Assembly: GCA_023853785.1 (NCBI GenBank)
Contig: JAJIRX010000668.1
Coordinates: forward strand, 248,001-312,000
Direction of reading: 5' to 3'
Source: Psilocybe azurescens
Lineage: Eukaryota; Basidiomycota; Agaricomycetes; Agaricales; Agrocybaceae
Length of the DNA: 64,000 nt
Shown here piece by piece: positions 3,214 through 11,001 of this stretch. The position numbers and the translations under genes were made by a program. The notes under the pieces are model-generated. The model was not told the origin of the DNA and made no database searches. It saw nothing but the letters and a program-made list of their open reading frames with translations. Position 1 is the first letter of the stretch, and each line of letters starts with the position of its first letter.

Positions 3214-4370
3214 TCACTCGCCGGTTTCCTCATCATATTCCATATGCTTGTTCATAGACTCTTCCCTGCACCCTCTCGAACAGAAGTAATCGATATCGCT
3301 CTGCGGCAAAGTCAAGCACATAATGCAAGGCGATGCCAGACCACTCGCAACAGCTTCCCTATTATAGTAACAATGACAACAAATCAGATCATCGTTAGAT
3401 ACATATTCATTGTTATGACAAGCGGGCAAACATGACGTACTCGCGGTGTCGCATCGAACAATAGTCACTGGCTTTCACCCCTTTCGCGTCAATGTGGACA
3501 GGCTGCCCGCAGCCAGGGATAAGGCACTCAGTATCATCGGCAGATTGTTGCGTGCTAATATGAAGCTGTTGAGCGGCAGGGAGTGGATTCGAAGAAGCTG
3601 CCAAGTTAACTGCACCATTCGTTACCACGTTCTGCGCAGGACCCGCCTGAGAAGTTCCGGGCTGCGGGACGGCGATGTTGAGGAAAGGGTTGTTTACGGG
3701 CACATTGTGGGTGGTAGGAGGAACGACTTGAGCTACAGGATTCGCAAAGGGATTCGTTACGATAGGTTGGGAAGTCGGTGCGGATGTGTGCCCTGCAGGG
3801 TTTCCGCTGGGATTGATCAAGGCCTGTACCTGCGGAATATGCTGTGCGACGAGTTCTGTGAAATAATTCAATAGATGAGATAAAGAACGATCGGGCACAT
3901 AAAAGGCACTGCGATGTCGAAATGTACTTACTTGCCAATTGTATCGGATCGAAGGCAGGTGCGCCTTGCTGTTGGGCCTTCGCGGCGTTCGGTTTAGTGT
4001 ACGTTTGCTGAGCTCCGACTCCAACAGGGTTCCGAGCCTTTCCGCTAGCGCTTGCCAATGCAGCACAATTCTTGCCGCAAAAGTCGAAGTTCTGGAATTT
4101 CGGCTTTTGTGGCATTGCTTCAAAGCCATTACGATATTAGTCCGCATGATACTCTAAGTCTGTCTGCGAGAGGGACTGACGTTGCACAGAGTCGCTGCCT
4201 GCCCGGCGCAGGTCTTCGAACAGTACGAGTGGTTAGAAAACTTCGGTTTCTGATGGCAATACTAAAGTAGTGGTCAAGGGTGTCCGGTATCACACAATCA
4301 AGAAAGTAGTACACACATCGCAAAGTTGAGATGCTTGTGTCGAAGGAACAACTTGAGCAACAGCAGCCAT
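3214..4370 (-). CDS. four-zinc-finger protein, PARP-family paralog lacking catalytic domain
   Basis: Five exons: 4317-4370, 4181-4261, 3932-4117, 3441-3855 and 3214-3358, giving 293 aa once a single missing A is allowed in an AAAA run near 4105. Finger 1 (LCDYCHQKPKF...YCSKTC), finger 2 (QCHKKPKF...FCGKNC), finger 3 (CLIPGCGQPVH...YCSMRH) and finger 4 (CIMCLTLP...FCSRGC) match, in order, the four fingers of the full PARP-like gene at 9.1-11.0 kb. Between fingers 2 and 3 lies a long Pro/Asn/Thr-rich linker. After finger 4 the protein stops within about 15 residues, so the ADP-ribosyltransferase domain is absent. Exon phases add up, so this looks like a real short protein and not a random break. 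It lies 254 bp downstream of the NADAR gene on the same strand. Possible roles (inference): competitor, adaptor or DNA/ADP-ribose reader. Confidence 0.7.
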
Positions 4371-4623
4371 TGTCTTTCAGGGGTAGGTCTGAGATAGAGG
4401 AAGATGGCGGATAAATAGCAAGGTTCACCTTCCTCGTTTTAATATTTGCTGCGCACCCCCACCTCGAGGACATGAGACGGTAACATCACTGATTTAAAAT
4501 CCAAAGATGCGTCAAAGATCAAACACCATCAGCTATAAGCATATGTACACGCGTTGTGCAAGCAGTAGAGAAAACAGGCAGACGAAACAGAACGATAAAA
4601 ACGAGGCTGCTATCGATGAGGAT

Positions 4624-5703
4624 CTAAAATCCGTTACCACGGAGTTTCGCCCTCAGCCTCTCGAGGCATTTCCCGAGCTCATTTCGGCCTTTTCTGTCAG
4701 CTCCTACGCCCCAAAACGCATCCTTATCGGAGTCCTGTCGAGATTTTAAGCATGAGTGTGGTTGCGGGCTATGAAATTGTCTGTTTACCTCAACAAGTTC
4801 CGCATCCCCGGTCGCCAGAAGTTCCGCCTGTAGATCAGCATGCTGGGTAAACTTGTGAAACAGAGTCTCATCCATCTATCATCATCGAGAGTCAATATAG
4901 TTGTTATGGACAGAAAAAGAAAGCGATCTAACTTTCTCGATGTTTACTTGTTTCCAATCTGGTCGTATTTCTGGCTGAAATCGACGAGCCTCAGAAAAGG
5001 CAGCACTGGGCCGCTCAGAACATGTTCGGATGTGCTCTGCAAGATTTGGCCGATGCTGTTGAAACTTATATGATAAAAAATATTTAGATAGATTTAGTTA
5101 CAGGAAATTCCGAAAACACTTTACCTTGAAGGATTGAAAGAGATGTTCACTTGTGGGATACTTTTTCCCGTTGTAAATAACGGGGTGAGGAGAAAAATTT
5201 GTGAAGCCATAATGTGGATCATGTTTGTGATAAAAGAGAATGCGGGATCGACTGGGAGATGCCTTAACAGGGGAAGAACGCCTCGGATTATCAGGAGGGG
5301 GAGGACAAAGACTCGCATTCGCGCTCTTGACGCCTGGTCGACGAGAACGGTAGACGCTGACTCTGGGCGAAGTGACCCGCAGCTCTTCACTTCGGTCAGG
5401 AACATCCTCAGTAATAGTATATTGGTTGTCGACGTGTGATTTTGTCCGACGGATCGGTTGTTCGGCGAAGACGTCCAGACCGCTTTCAGAAGTCTCTGTG
5501 AGGGTGAACATGGTGTTCAAGCTATGTGTATCCCATTGAGAAGGATCTACGTCGGATGACACATAAATTGTTCGACTCCGTTCTTCGACGCGGTAGACAG
5601 GCGCCTTTGTTGCAGTCGGAGACGCGAGGCCACCAAGCGGAGGTAGAGACCTCGTATTGACCGGGGGCGACGTGACAATGGTAATGGTTTGACGGGTTTG
5701 CAT
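4624..5703 (-). CDS. NADAR-domain protein (ADP-ribose processing)
   Basis: Four exons, all in phase and with no frame error: 5125-5703, 4933-5064, 4789-4875 and 4624-4734, 302 aa. Residues 1 to about 150 are Ser/Pro/Arg-rich and disordered. The NADAR domain follows: a start segment with YGFTNFSPHPVIYNGKKYPT, then SEHLFQSFKFQ, a middle helix region with RPDW, KFTQHADLQAELLATGD, and the diagnostic C-terminal WGVGADRKGRNELGKCL. NADAR (YbiA-like) proteins bind or cleave N-glycosidic bonds of ADP-ribose-type substrates; some reverse guanine ADP-ribosylation. The length and motif order fit a complete domain at the C terminus. The start at 5703 is chosen as the first ATG after a poorly supported upstream extension (possible start as far as 5841). 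Its neighbours are PARP-like genes, which supports a role in reversing ADP-ribosylation (inference). Confidence 0.85.
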
Positions 5704-6454
5704 GTTTGAACGGTGGCGAAGGGAAATTGAACAAATTGAGTGTCTGTGTTGTGAGGTTCCTTCCAGAGTTATACCGTGTTGAATCGCTTGTAGAATATTC
5801 GTCCAAGATCCAAAGCACAGCTGTTGCCAACCGTTGAGCAATCTGAACCTTGCTACAACAACGTTGCTCCTTTGATTATCTCGAAACGGCCCCGTGGAAT
5901 CAATGAGTCAAAAAAGCCGATATAGATCATCCTTCCATTTGCAAGCAATGTGTTTGTAGTCTTGCCGCCTCGAGGCCCCTTGGATTATCATGGTTTGGTC
6001 GGTGTAAGGTGTGAAAATAAGAGTCGACATGGCCATCAACTGTCAGTGTTACATACATAGCTTGTGTGACATGACCTCCTTGGACTTAAACCACCACCAC
6101 GACAGTCATTTTCTATCGCAGACTGTCTGCAGAACAAAAGAATTTTGAATCATGCTGTCTAATTGCTATGGGATATCATAAGCTTTGGATGCTATGTCTG
6201 CGGCTTGTTCTATGTATGCCCTTCAATGTTTCGTAACCTTCGTCGACGGTCATGCAACATGGACGCGAACGAGATGCGGTGCATTGTCGTCAGTAACACG
6301 CCAAATCCTCGTGTCTACTTCTGAAATGAATATCCACACATCGCCTGTCCAAGTCTCAGCGATACTCCTTGATGCAACCAGGGTCTTAAATTGATACAAA
6401 ATTCCTTTATTATCTTGCTTTTTGATCATCTCATTTTTCCAGATTCACAAAGAA
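5704..6454. other. divergent intergenic region between NADAR and PARP-like genes
   Basis: No gene recognised. A pyrimidine-rich AG just before 6444 resembles a 3' splice site in front of the PARP-like gene, so a 5' UTR intron or an unrecognised upstream exon is possible. The stretch would contain the promoters of both divergent genes. Confidence 0.35.
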
Positions 6455-7495
6455 ATGTCTACAATCATCGACGAATTCAGTTTCAATCACCCGGAAAACA
6501 AGGGCTACGGGAAATGGAAGAGGTTAAGAATTCTCTCTTGCGATGACTTGGAATACTCAAAAAGTGAGTTGTCCTTCACCGTTTATGTATTTACTCCTAA
6601 TAAAGTTCATTAGTCGAGGCAAATTTCAACAAAGGCTGGAAGCACCCTCAGAAAGCACGGCCGAAAATTCATGCTATTTTCAAAGTCCTGTCATCCGATT
6701 CGAATTTGCAGCCTTTCCACCGCTATCGGTGCGTCATCCCTCCAACCACGAAAATGCGGCGCAGCTTACCATTTTTGAAAACATTCCAGAGCTCTTGTCA
6801 TATCATCGCCTGCTCTTCGTAACCGTACAAAGAATCCCGCCAATGAACAACTGCTTTTCCACGGCACAAATCGTTTCTGCGGTCTAGTTGAAGATGGAAG
6901 CAGGGTGCGACTTTGTAGCCTCTCAAAGTGTCACCTATGCAGCGTCATTCGCAACTCTTTTGATGTCCAGAAATGTGGTACGTTGGTTTAGATTTCCTCA
7001 ATTTTACAGTGGCTTATGTTGGGCCTCAAGGTACAAAACATAAGTTCCGCCGTTTCGGGACAGGCATCTACACAACAGCGTGCTCTTCTAGTAAGTGAAT
7101 CCTGAAATTTGTTATATATCCTTTCGCTCATGTCAATCTTAGAGGCGGACGATTATACGCTTAACGGTGACGAATCATCTAAGCTTCGTGTTCTCCTAGT
7201 GAGCCGTGTAATTGTTGGCAATCCACACAAGCGTCGCCACAATGCCACAGATTTGATCGAGCCACCATGCGGCCACCACTCGGTATGGTTATGTCTGTCG
7301 TGTATTCCGATATCTAACCTATCTGTTTAGGTCATAGGGGAGCCTGGCTCAGATTTAAACTACGAAGAGACCGTAGTATACAACAACGACGCGATACGTC
7401 CTGCTTATCTCATTGTTTACGGTGAGATGCCAATATCGAAATCGAAATTTCACTCCTTCATCACTGCTTTATTTAAGACGCCTTTGGCGTCATAA
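6455..7495 (+). CDS. PARP-like ADP-ribosyltransferase, catalytic domain only
   Basis: Six exons: 6455-6563, 6614-6728, about 6833-6977, 7010-7090, 7143-7282 and 7331-7495, about 251 aa. The protein is essentially one PARP-type catalytic domain: histidine motif FHGTNRFC, tyrosine motif RFGTGIYTTACSSKADDY, and the glutamate segment NYEETVVYNNDAIRP, so the H-Y-E triad is complete. Exon 2 is 115 nt, exactly the length of the matching exon of the paralog at 9.1-11.0 kb. Exon 3 needs one extra base for the frame to continue, or an unusual acceptor a few bases earlier. No zinc finger precedes it, although an upstream exon cannot be excluded. Transcribed away from the NADAR gene. The predicted activity is mono- or poly-ADP-ribosylation; the substrate is unknown. 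Confidence 0.75.
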
Positions 7496-7617
7496 TCTTT
7501 GCTTAACTTGGGGCAACTTTTTTGTTGTAATATAATTCGATAATTTATTAAATTACAGCCTTAATCGACCATTGGTGTTAGCATAATTTGTTTCGAGCTA
7601 TTCCTTCAATTTCTTTC

Positions 7618-8675
7618 TCATTTGCTTGTCGCGTATATGATGATATGCATAGGCAGTATCCCGTCAACTGTTGGCACGAAGAGCGACTCTTCATCTGTGG
7701 TCTGCAACGATATCGGCAAAGATCCCAATATTCAAACTAGGAAAGTGACGTACCTCATCGACATCGACATCTGTAGGTTCGACGGCTATATCACAAGCAA
7801 TCACGACTCGGTACGGCGAAGATGTGCACGATGTTGCAAATCGGTCAGCCAGGGCAGGATTTCGATACGAGTATATGCCTTCTCCAAACCTGATGGCGAC
7901 TGGTTAGTAATACTATTCTGATCGTGATGATACACTGACTTACCTTCCACTATTATAGTTGGCCCCAAAAGCGAACGATTTAAAGCACGATTTGACAATG
8001 CAGCAAATACCACAGGACTTAAAGTTACATAGGGTTGGCTCTTTCGCCCCCAGGTCGCAAATGCACTGGGAACTATGGAAGCTTCGAATCTCGTCAAACG
8101 TGGGATTTGCTTTCCTGGATGATGCATCAAGACACTTGTTATGTGATAACCCAGGCCCCGGACTCGCCTGTATTGTTCATGACGGAGACGAATGTCCCTA
8201 GGAAGGATAATTTCGTACGCCTTTTCAAAAGACGGAGATACACCGGGTGATTCCCATTCGCTTAAGAATTGAGCTCGCACTGAAAAAGACATCAGGTATT
8301 TGGATTCAATTAGCAATAAGAGATCAACATACAATTTCTAAACGTCTTGCTGTCGGAGCTCAGTTCTCGAAGTTGAGGCTCTATACGGACAACGCGGTCG
8401 CAAGGAATACACATCGTCCCGACTGTGCGAGGCTGAGTCTCGCACAGCTCACACTTGTCGACCTGCCCCAAGCGCACACCTTCCCTGAAAAGGCATCAAA
8501 GGCTACTTCATACTCGATGCCCTTCCGTAAACTTACCGTGCATGAGCCTCTGAGCAGAAGTTGGCGAAGGCAGGTTTGCCTGTCGCACGGCAACCTTGAA
8601 GGGCACAGACTGTTGGACTAGGACCCGTTCCATTTCGTGCGCAGCTCCTGCTGCAGTATGGGTGTTTGTGGCCAT
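7618..8675 (-). CDS. divergent PARP-like protein with zinc ribbon
   Basis: Minus-strand gene between the two plus-strand PARP genes. The N terminus (from ATG at 8675) is followed by a zinc ribbon KCELCETQPRTVG...CIPCD, then QFLSEWESPGVSP...HEQYR, matching the start of the catalytic domain in the neighbours. The histidine motif is degenerate (SFHSSQCIC instead of FHGT), and the tyrosine motif is FGEGIYSYRNPALADRF. The glutamate segment is DEESLFVPTVDG followed by a hydrophobic strand ending YATSK and stop. The intron after HEQYR has a GC donor (AG|GCGAGT, intron 8115-8167) and restores the frame exactly. The junction of exon 1 (8537-8675) to the ribbon exon is off by one base, and the stretch around 8280-8330 may hide another intron. 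So the gene model is partly uncertain, but the domain assignment is supported by three motifs in order. Confidence 0.6.
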
Positions 8676-9087
8676 TTTCGACGAATTTCGGCTTCTTCCC
8701 GCAGATCTTCCGGATAAGCCCTCATGAGCGAAAATCAATCTCGACGACGGAAAAGATATACTTCGCATAAGTCTACTGGTACGGGTGTCTTGGTCCTCTG
8801 ACTGGATCCCCAGTGCACGACATTTTTTACGAGGGATACCATGTTGGAAGTTCGGAAGTGAAGATGAAGATGAGAGAATCGACACGTTCATCGATATCAT
8901 GTATAAGGGGTGCATGATGGCCTCGTGAAGGACACGAAGCAACCTCGTTTTTGCAAGTCGAAATCGGTGCTGTCCGGGCATGGTATCATTCGGTTTCGAC
9001 ATCTGTTTAAAAATCGATTCCTTGATCCTTGTTCTTCTTCAAGATTGTTCATTTTTTGTCCTTGGAGCACCGTTGTTCGAGTCTGCG

Positions 9088-11001
9088 ATGGCCTCCCATA
9101 TTCCTCTTGCACTGTCTCTCCTGGGCACGTTGGCCAGTCATTACCCGCTGGGATCGATGACCCAGAAGGCAGCACCGCCTCCGCCTCCGCCTCCGAGTGT
9201 TGCGCCATCTGCCCCAACTCAGAGCGCCCCTGTTCTTCCAACAGCTCCTCCAATCACTACTCCTGGGCCAAATCCTTCCGGAAACGCGAACGGGACTACT
9301 GGGGCAACCGCCAACAGCAATGCAGGAAGCAGCCCTCCAGTTATCAACCCTGTGGCCCTGTGCGAGGCATGTAGACTTCATCTGGAGTAAAACTCTGAAA
9401 TTTCTGAATTTCTGCTATTGCAGGTTTGTCATCTCCGACCAAAATACTTTGACGGCACCAAGACGCATCCCTACTGTAGCAAGTCCTGCGCAAATAAAAA
9501 AACTAGTAACGGTAGTACCAATCCACCAGGATCTTTTTCGGGCACCGGAAACAGTGGCAAGTGCGACGTAAGTTGACATCGATCCGGATGTCTATATCTG
9601 TCCTGACTTCACCGATATCGACTAGTTTTGCCACAATAGACCTAAGTATACAGATGGAACAAAAGTGCACGATTTCTGCAGCAAAGCATGCGCCAGAAGT
9701 GCAAGTGGACCTCAAACAAAAGCCTCAGGTGGCGGAGGCGGAGGCGGAAACTCGACTGCTGGTAACTCACAAGCTCGCCTGTCGCGAATTGTACACTCGT
9801 TCTAACTCTGAGATAGCGACCTGCCAGGCTCCTGGATGTCAAAACCCTCCTCATCCGGGTGGGCACGATTACTGCTCTCTGGCGCACAAAACGTCCGTTG
9901 TTGATTTTCAAACACTGTTCCCAGTTCGGGTGCTGATGCTTCCCACAGGCTAGGAGAGAATCTGTGCCTCATGTGCATGCAGGCTCCCAAGATGGCAAAC
10001 TCTCATTTTTGCAGCCAGCCATGCATCGACGACGCAGAAAGCAAAGGTCCCATGATCCTAGAAGTGCCTGCAGGCCATGTTACTTTCAAAAGCGGTAAGT
10101 TTTCGAAACGCTTCGATTGCCCTGTTCGAGGTCCACAACGTCTCTCCTTTGCAGTAGCCGATCAATTCAAGGCGTCTTGGCGGCATGTTGGAACCGTTAG
10201 CCCGCCTGTACGACGCGTGTATAAGATTTTAGCACCTCCAGCTTCTCTGGCTTCCTACAACGCTTATCGGTAATGAGACCTGCCTAATTTCCGCTTGTGT
10301 CTTAGTTGACGATCTCCGTAACAGGGCAGCGGTCGAGTCTCGAGGGCAGTTTGCAAGCTCGGGTCGATCCGAAGGGAACGAGAATCGAAGATGGCACGGC
10401 ACACGACGTGTATGTAATCTCGGGGATAAGGGACACACCCAGTTCTGTTCAGCCTCCAATTGCTCTCTGTGTTGCATCATTCGCACCTCCTACGACATCT
10501 CTCTGTGGGGAAAGAAGACAGGCTGGGGAAGGTTCGTAACTTGGGCCATTTCTTTTCTTCCAGGTTCTTGGTTGATTCTGAAGATCCAACCATCTAGATT
10601 TGGAAAAGGAATCTACACGTCATCGACATCTTCAAAGTCGGTCACCATTGATTATATTCCATTAGTCTCCTGCTGATGTATGTCATCTAGGTCCAATGAT
10701 TATTCCCATAACGATTGCAAATCGTCGTTGAAGGCGATTCTTCTCAACAAAGTCGTTGTAGGGAAAGGATGCAAGTTGCTCCAAGACAATACATCGCTAA
10801 CGGCGCCTCCTGCGGGATACGATTCTGTAAGTAACAACAGATTCCAAGTCGGCTAACAGTCACTCACCTTAATGCAACCTCATCTCGTGATGTTATCAGG
10901 TTCTCGCGGAAAAGGGAGGAAGCTTGAATTACGACGAGCTTGTCGTGTACAGCAACGATGCCATCCGACCATCATTCCTGGTCATGTACGACGAGCCCTA
11001 G
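9088..11001 (+). CDS. four-zinc-finger PARP-like ADP-ribosyltransferase
   Basis: Ten exons (9088-9366, 9424-9567, 9626-9761, 9817-9892, 9949-10094, 10155-10269, 10325-10531, 10598-10636, 10691-10826, 10900-11001) sum to 1380 nt, 459 aa, with every phase matching and no frame error. A Pro-rich N terminus precedes finger 1 (LCEVCHLRPKY...YCSKSC), finger 2 (KCDFCHNRPKY...FCSKAC), finger 3 (CQAPGCQNPPHPGGHDYCS) and finger 4 (CLMCMQAPK...FCSQPC). The catalytic domain follows: histidine in RRWHGTRRVCNLGDKGH, tyrosine in RFGKGIYTSSTSSKSNDY and glutamate in LNYDELVVYSNDAIRP. The intron 9367-9423 uses a GC donor (GAG|GCATGT), required for the C-x2-C spacing of finger 1. The start could also be a later ATG (before TQKAAPPP). 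A likely nuclear ADP-ribosyltransferase; the fingers may bind nucleic acid or protein. Confidence 0.85.

What the first reader, a model, noticed from the sequence alone, without database searches (positions are those of the whole stretch)
3214..11001. ADP-ribosylation island: NADAR eraser with three PARP-like writers and a finger-only paralog
Seen: five genes in 7.8 kb. One has the complete NADAR motif set (WGVGADRKGRNELGKCL). Three have H, Y and E segments of the PARP catalytic domain. One shares all four zinc fingers with the full-length PARP but ends before the catalytic domain. Known: NADAR proteins act on ADP-ribose and some reverse nucleic-acid ADP-ribosylation; in bacteria they pair with DarT-type toxins. 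Inference: a eukaryotic writer/eraser locus, possibly for DNA/RNA or defence-related ADP-ribosylation, or a heterokaryon conflict system.
Basis: partly seen in the sequence, partly recalled or inferred. Interest (0 to 1): 0.88.

Follow-up and report, generated by a model that had tools for sequence, protein, structure and literature searches.

The report
Mushroom ADP-ribose writer and eraser cluster
In a mushroom close to Psilocybe, an enzyme predicted to remove ADP-ribose sits beside two intact and one worn-out enzyme predicted to attach it; the neighbourhood recurs across many mushroom species, but so does the gene order around it, so teamwork is plausible and not shown.

Summary
The five genes are real, with corrections. 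B (4624-5703) is a complete YbiA-class NADAR. C and E are intact H-Y-E PARP-fold genes. D keeps H and Y but lost the HG glycine, most of a loop and, as aligned, the catalytic Glu; it is below the Pfam cut-off. A is finger-only, with finger 2 damaged in the best in-frame model. E belongs to a conserved Agaricomycete family: four Cys fingers plus an ART domain with a four-Cys insert; I found no description of it in the papers searched. NADAR and E relatives share a contig in 42 of 50 species seen in both top-120 lists (about 2.6 expected by chance). However, a flanking control, COQ4, shares the contig with E in 27 of 35, so the linkage is not shown to exceed regional synteny (Fisher p 0.57). Searches showed no such pairing at three other PARP loci and two other NADAR loci of this genome. 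B also passes the riboflavin-intermediate N-glycosidase cut-off, a mundane rival. Most likely: a conserved ADP-ribosylation locus in which E and C write and B may erase. Coupling, acceptor and any nucleic-acid target are inferred. Heterokaryon conflict is not supported. New variant of a known kind.

The parts
3214..4370 (-). Gene A, finger-only paralog (conceptual 294 aa; exons 4317-4370, 4177-4261, 3932-4117, 3441-3855, 3214-3358); fingers 1, 3, 4 intact, finger 2 damaged
   Evidence: model; no Pfam family above cut-off; outside the window only a weak match on C260
4624..5703 (-). Gene B, YbiA-class NADAR, 302 aa (exons 5125-5703, 4933-5064, 4789-4875, 4624-4734); E186, K193, E266, D271, W274 match the ADP-ribose-binding residues of the P. 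nicotianae NADAR
   Evidence: columns at least 90% conserved with 27 relatives
6455..7495 (+). Gene C, finger-less PARP, 258 aa, H99/Y151/E217 (exons 6455-6563, 6614-6728, 6790-6977, 7031-7090, 7143-7282, 7331-7495)
   Evidence: 98% identical over 238 aa to the start of Psilocybe cyanescens P0001
7618..8842 (-). Gene D, eroded finger-PARP paralog, 301 aa (exons 8762-8842, 8537-8706, 8333-8484, 8168-8279, 7944-8114, 7754-7889, 7618-7701)
   Evidence: Pfam PARP 11.8 bits, below cut-off; Ser280 in the catalytic Glu column and loop loss
9088..11001 (+). Gene E, four-finger PARP, 459 aa, H323/Y374/E439, ten exons
   Evidence: ART fold of residues 243-459
5704..6454 (.). 751-base head-to-head spacer between B (NADAR) and C (PARP)
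   Evidence: coordinates
8843..9087 (.). 245-base head-to-head spacer between D and E
   Evidence: coordinates

Best explanation
A conserved Agaricomycete ADP-ribosylation locus. E, and probably C, are active PARP-fold transferases that move ADP-ribose from NAD+ to an acceptor held by E's zinc fingers. B is a YbiA-class NADAR that splits N-glycosidic ADP-ribose bonds and may erase what the neighbours write, perhaps on guanine in RNA or DNA. D and A come from the same finger-PARP stock and have lost the catalytic part: D is a probable pseudo-enzyme, A a finger-only protein that could at most compete or scaffold. Shown: genes, domains, intact active-site residues, fold of E, recurrence of the neighbourhood. 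Inferred: metal binding by the fingers, activity, acceptor, writer-eraser coupling.
Against: COQ4 control: linked to E in 27 of 35 species, so gene order of the whole block is conserved. In 28 species with all three genes, NADAR keeps to E where COQ4 does not in 4, the reverse in 1 (p 0.375). In Amanita inopinata the COQ4 tag is nearer to E than the NADAR tag (6596, 6604, 6614). The searches showed no NADAR on the contigs of PARP loci C260, C438 and C500, and no PARP on those of the NADARs at C780 and C201 (exon-wise searches of limited sensitivity). B passes the riboflavin N-glycosidase cut-off. A macrodomain gene also exists, so B is not the only candidate eraser. In the E model the stretches 361-372 and 426-440, the latter holding E439, have pLDDT under 50. 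The C. cinerea NADAR model (P0185) lacks the last part of the domain and falls below the TIGR02464 cut-off. No expression data.
Confidence: 0.42

Rival explanations
1. The neighbours are functionally separate. B is a housekeeping N-glycosidase (riboflavin-intermediate or other metabolite damage control), E is an unrelated conserved PARP, and they travel together because this whole block (COQ4 to at least E) keeps its order in Agaricomycetes.
For: COQ4 control 27 of 35. B scores 107.5 bits on TIGR02464 riboflavin N-glycosidase, cut-off 73.7. Best solved relative is E. coli YbiA, 1.1e-26. Locus tags of Amanita phalloides space E, NADAR and COQ4 evenly (7645, 7648, 7651).
Against: The genome holds another NADAR (C780) whose 151-aa piece scores higher on TIGR02464, 123.3 bits, so B is not needed for that role. 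YbiA-class proteins also remove guanine ADP-ribose in vitro (PMC11125620, abstract and discussion). The meeting of two ADP-ribose enzyme classes by chance is unlikely (rough estimate).
Confidence: 0.37
2. B protects the fungus from foreign guanine-ADP-ribosylating toxins, and the PARP cluster is a separate stress or RNA-binding system.
For: NADARs reverse guanosine ADP-ribosylation of RNA in vitro, and a protective role is proposed (PMC11833690, passages). B residues intact.
Against: B relatives are well conserved, 48-98% identical in the 120 listed, with no sign of an arms race; selection was not measured.
Confidence: 0.13
3. Conflict or heterokaryon-incompatibility (toxin-antitoxin-like) system.
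For: NADAR pairs with ART toxins in bacteria (DarT1, YarT; PMC11543638, PMC11125620). A and D look partly decayed.
Against: E and B relatives are found across the listed genera and are well conserved. Not tested: polymorphism within a species.
Confidence: 0.08

Closest known systems
DarT1-NADAR toxin-antitoxin (bacteria)
   Same: A NADAR beside ADP-ribosyltransferase genes; B has the ADP-ribose-binding residues
   Different: The transferases here are H-Y-E PARP-fold genes, E with Cys fingers, not DarT; B is YbiA-class (Glu266), not the Asp class; separate spliced fungal genes, no operon
YarT-YbiA (myxobacteria, PMC11125620)
   Same: YbiA-class NADAR next to a small transferase
   Different: No YarT comparison was made here; the fungal transferases are PARP catalytic domains with relatives across a class of fungi
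E. coli YbiA / riboflavin-intermediate N-glycosidase
   Same: B passes TIGR02464; best solved relative is YbiA 2b3w
   Different: B has an N-terminal extension of about 150 aa, partly conserved, and a second, higher-scoring NADAR is in the genome
Tankyrase, PARP10, PARP14, PARP3, PARP4 catalytic domains
   Same: ART fold in E and H-Y-E triad in E and C
   Different: E has four N-terminal Cys fingers, a four-Cys insert between H and Y, and no WGR, SAM or ankyrin hit in Pfam

Membership tests
PARP (ARTD) catalytic family, genes C and E | Pfam PARP above cut-off | tested here: met
   58.8 and 52.9 bits, cut-off 26.7
PARP (ARTD) catalytic family, genes C and E | H-Y-E triad | tested here: met
   C H99/Y151/E217, E H323/Y374/E439
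PARP (ARTD) catalytic family, gene E | ART fold | tested here: met
PARP (ARTD) catalytic family, gene D | Pfam cut-off and triad | tested here: not met
   11.8 bits; HG to HS, Ser280 in the Glu column, loop mostly lost
PARP (ARTD) catalytic family | Transfer of ADP-ribose from NAD+ | not testable with these tools
   needs assay
PARP1-type (Clade 1) PARP | WGR domain | tested here: not met
   No WGR in E at E up to 1; a WGR and a PARP hit lie 1.6 kb apart at C500
Clade 6 fungal PARP (UBCc/E2-like domain) | E2-like domain | tested here: not met
   None in C or E by Pfam; no tree against Clade 6 was made
NADAR superfamily, YbiA class | NADAR domain | tested here: met
   1.4e-37
NADAR superfamily, YbiA class | Glu in the late catalytic position and E/K of the ADP-ribose site | tested here: met
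   E266, E186, K193 by alignment to 8bau
NADAR superfamily, YbiA class | Hydrolysis of guanine-ADP-ribose | not testable with these tools
   needs assay
Riboflavin-intermediate N-glycosidase (TIGR02464) | Curated score cut-off | tested here: met
   107.5 bits, cut-off 73.7
DarT1-NADAR system | DarT-type transferase | tested here: not met
   Transferases C and E match PARP and have H-Y-E, with no other ART family in Pfam; no separate DarT comparison was made
DarT1-NADAR system | Asp-class NADAR | tested here: not met
   Glu266
FCS/MYM-type zinc finger | Pfam zf-FCS above cut-off | tested here: inconclusive
   13.2 bits in E, 16.7 in P0015, cut-off 22.4

The most novel reading that the evidence does not exclude
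Mushroom-forming fungi carry a class-wide system of reversible ADP-ribosylation, probably of RNA or DNA: a four-finger PARP outside the fungal clades described so far writes, an N-terminally extended YbiA-class NADAR coded beside it erases, and decayed finger paralogs tune it. It would be a eukaryotic counterpart of the bacterial transferase-NADAR pairs.
Probability: 0.25. Interest if true: 0.78.

Novelty: new variant of a known kind. Interest (0 to 1): 0.5.

Why it matters
The role of eukaryotic NADARs is stated to be unclear (PMC11125620, discussion). A fungal NADAR with PARP-fold transferases as long-standing neighbours gives a testable pair in a tractable organism (Coprinopsis cinerea, CC1G_11638 and CC1G_11641, though the database model of the latter lacks the end of the domain). 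It also points to a conserved PARP family that the passages I saw of an evolutionary survey of PARPs (fungi: Clades 1 and 6 only) do not describe.

Tried and rejected
Functional coupling from synteny alone: rejected as proof after the COQ4 control. NADAR as the only eraser: rejected, a macrodomain gene is on C529; ARH gave no hit with working controls; PARG gave no hit but its control rang nowhere, so inconclusive. Relatives of E in viral contigs and in bacterial or archaeal genomes: two scans, none confirmed, each limited to two short peptide patterns. Pfam on ten large ORFs elsewhere in the window: nothing. The structure rows shown cover residues 229-459 at most, so nothing is said of the fold of the fingers. 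An alignment for D (A4) was made and no structure job for it was run. The PF00644 genome search did not find the window's own PARP genes, so it is insensitive to this family; the E protein search found C260 and C438.

Rows dropped or entered oddly: in the contig counts, rows without an organism name or contig length were left out, and repeated contigs were entered once. P0120 (Amanita rubescens) was entered with a placeholder and left out, and P0096 was left out; neither changes a count. About a dozen named COQ4 rows (Tulasnella, Serendipita, Sistotremastrum, Lactarius and others) were not entered, as those organisms are in neither other list. Of the 8 species not sharing E and NADAR contigs, three have tags of different assemblies for the two genes (Ephemerocybe, Lentinula raphanica, Agaricus bisporus), and C. 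cinerea has near tags (11638, 11641) but different contig lengths. With those four out it is 42 of 46 against 27 of 35, p 0.11. I did not clean the COQ4 side in the same way, so this favours NADAR. Only the best 120 of 356, 692 and 2363 hits were visible.
Full report
WHAT IS THERE. The window lies in G000:C569:248001-312000 of a 70.4 Mb assembly. It comes from a fungus close to Psilocybe cyanescens: B is 98% and C 98% identical to that species' proteins, and the flanking COQ4 piece 100%. By hand I modelled five spliced genes: A (-, 3214-4370), B (-, 4624-5703), C (+, 6455-7495), D (-, 7618-8842) and E (+, 9088-11001). The modelled introns run GT-AG except two with GC donors (E intron 1, D intron 4). 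B and C are head to head (751 bases apart), D and E also (245 bases).

THE NADAR. B scores 129.9 bits on Pfam NADAR. Its solved relatives are E. coli YbiA 2b3w (1.1e-26) and the NADAR chain 8bau (2e-9), which I take for the Phytophthora nicotianae protein (the molecule name in the call is only 'NADAR domain-containing protein'; the identification is recalled). Section 12 of PMC11543638 (read) names E43, K50, E125, D130 and W133 around bound ADP-ribose; by the alignment these are E186, K193, E266, D271 and W274 of B (a two-residue offset between chain and paper numbering is my reading). They lie in columns at least 90% conserved in an alignment with 27 relatives, which also share parts of an N-terminal extension. 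B passes the riboflavin N-glycosidase model (107.5 bits, cut-off 73.7). So does a 151-aa piece of a second NADAR on C780 (123.3 bits), while a joined piece of a third on C201 falls below (56.8 bits). Of three B relatives scanned, two pass and the C. cinerea model P0185 does not (67.3 bits, its end missing). C780 is closer to 8bau (1.7e-17) than to YbiA (1.4e-5).

THE TRANSFERASES. C and E pass Pfam PARP and keep H, Y and E. In 38 aligned sequences (E plus 37 of the 120 listed relatives) Y374 is invariant and H323 and E439 are at least 90% conserved (P0074 lacks the H stretch, P0117 ends before the Glu); the 16 finger Cys/His positions are invariant or at least 90% conserved. A four-Cys insert (C329, C340, C345, C348) sits between H and Y and recurs in C and in D. 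The AlphaFold2 model of E (mean pLDDT 65; under 50 at 361-372 and 426-440) aligns over about 243-459 with PARP14, PARP10 and tankyrase catalytic domains. A profile search puts PARP3 (5e-10) and PARP4 (4.8e-9) first by sequence. D keeps fingers and the Cys insert but has HS for HG, Ser280 in the catalytic Glu column and a mostly lost loop; it is most likely inactive. A has no catalytic part, and finger 2 is damaged in the in-frame model. Genome searches with A and D found no close second copy.

CONSERVED NEIGHBOURHOOD. Protein searches returned 356 E relatives, 692 NADAR relatives and 2363 COQ4 relatives, with 120 listed of each. I used contig lengths as fingerprints of contigs. E and NADAR share a contig in 42 of 50 species present in both lists, against about 2.6 expected if placement were random in 40 Mb genomes. 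The species span Agaricales, with Rickenella, Abortiporus and Panus outside it (orders recalled). Locus tags (E/NADAR) are near in C. cinerea 11638/11641, Leucocoprinus birnbaumii g10027/g10028, Amanita phalloides 7645/7648, Stygiomarasmius 10021/10019 and A. polypyramis 3058/3063, and further apart in A. inopinata 6596/6614 and P. cyanescens 7291/7271; tags are only a rough guide to order. Two database proteins join the C and E orthologs (P0001, P0002), as run-on models or real fusions, so those genes are neighbours in P. cyanescens and Gymnopilus dilepis.

THE CONTROL. The matched part of COQ4 lies 67 to 940 bases left of the window (L031 9061-9934), about 9 kb from E and 5 kb from B; B and E are 3.4 kb apart. 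COQ4 shares the contig with E in 27 of 35 species and with NADAR in 26 of 35. Fisher p against NADAR-E is 0.57, or 0.11 after leaving out four possibly mismatched species on the NADAR side only. In the 28 species with all three genes the discordant cases are 4 against 1 (p 0.375). COQ4 is further away, which by itself lowers its share on short contigs. Only one control gene was affordable. So linkage is real and old, but not shown to exceed regional gene-order conservation. Outside Agaricales the counts are tiny and post hoc: E and NADAR share in 3 of 3 species, E and COQ4 in 0 of 2 others (Plicaturopsis, Taiwanofungus), NADAR and COQ4 in 1 of 1 (Athelia psychrophila) (orders recalled).

ELSEWHERE IN THE GENOME. 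Two more finger-PARP genes lie on C260 and a C-like one on C438. WGR and PARP hits lie together on C500. The searches showed no NADAR on these contigs and no PARP on those of the NADARs at C780 and C201. They score only the best candidates exon by exon, so counts are lower bounds. One macrodomain locus is on C529.

LITERATURE. Passages of PMC2964712 state that fungi encode only Clade 1 and Clade 6 PARPs; passages of PMC4245714 do not describe this family. PMC11543638 (passages, sections 11 and 12), PMC11125620 (passages, discussion), PMC11833690, PMC13036486 and PMC9503650 (passages) show or discuss NADAR activity on guanine ADP-ribose and bacterial transferase pairs; in what I saw there is no fungal NADAR-PARP neighbourhood. 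The listings of seven searches showed none; the library is open-access only.

VERDICT. The writer-eraser reading remains the leading one by a small margin over inherited neighbours.

Noticed in passing
window 12.7-14.1 kb, - strand: 60S ribosomal protein L4 gene (Pfam Ribosomal_L4 and Ribos_L4_asso_C); what looks like a multi-pass membrane protein gene lies between it and E at about 11.4-12.5 kb (read by eye).
   Followed up: partly
L031 9061-9934 (C569 about 247.1-247.9 kb): COQ4 gene just left of the window, its start perhaps inside the window; used as synteny control.
   Followed up: yes
L023, L024 (C260): Two further finger-PARP genes in divergent orientation; the one on L024 reads WLG where E has WHG, so it may be inactive.
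   Followed up: partly
L003/L005 (C201): A third NADAR gene whose SE..K motif reads AL..K, below the riboflavin-model cut-off; possibly degenerate.
   Followed up: partly
window 9367-9423 and 8115-8167: GC-AG introns in E and D; in P. cyanescens the first finger region of E seems to be modelled differently at the same place (P0001).
   Followed up: no
P0063, P0104 (Thelephora terrestris): Database proteins with two finger-PARP units in one chain, real or run-on models.
   Followed up: no
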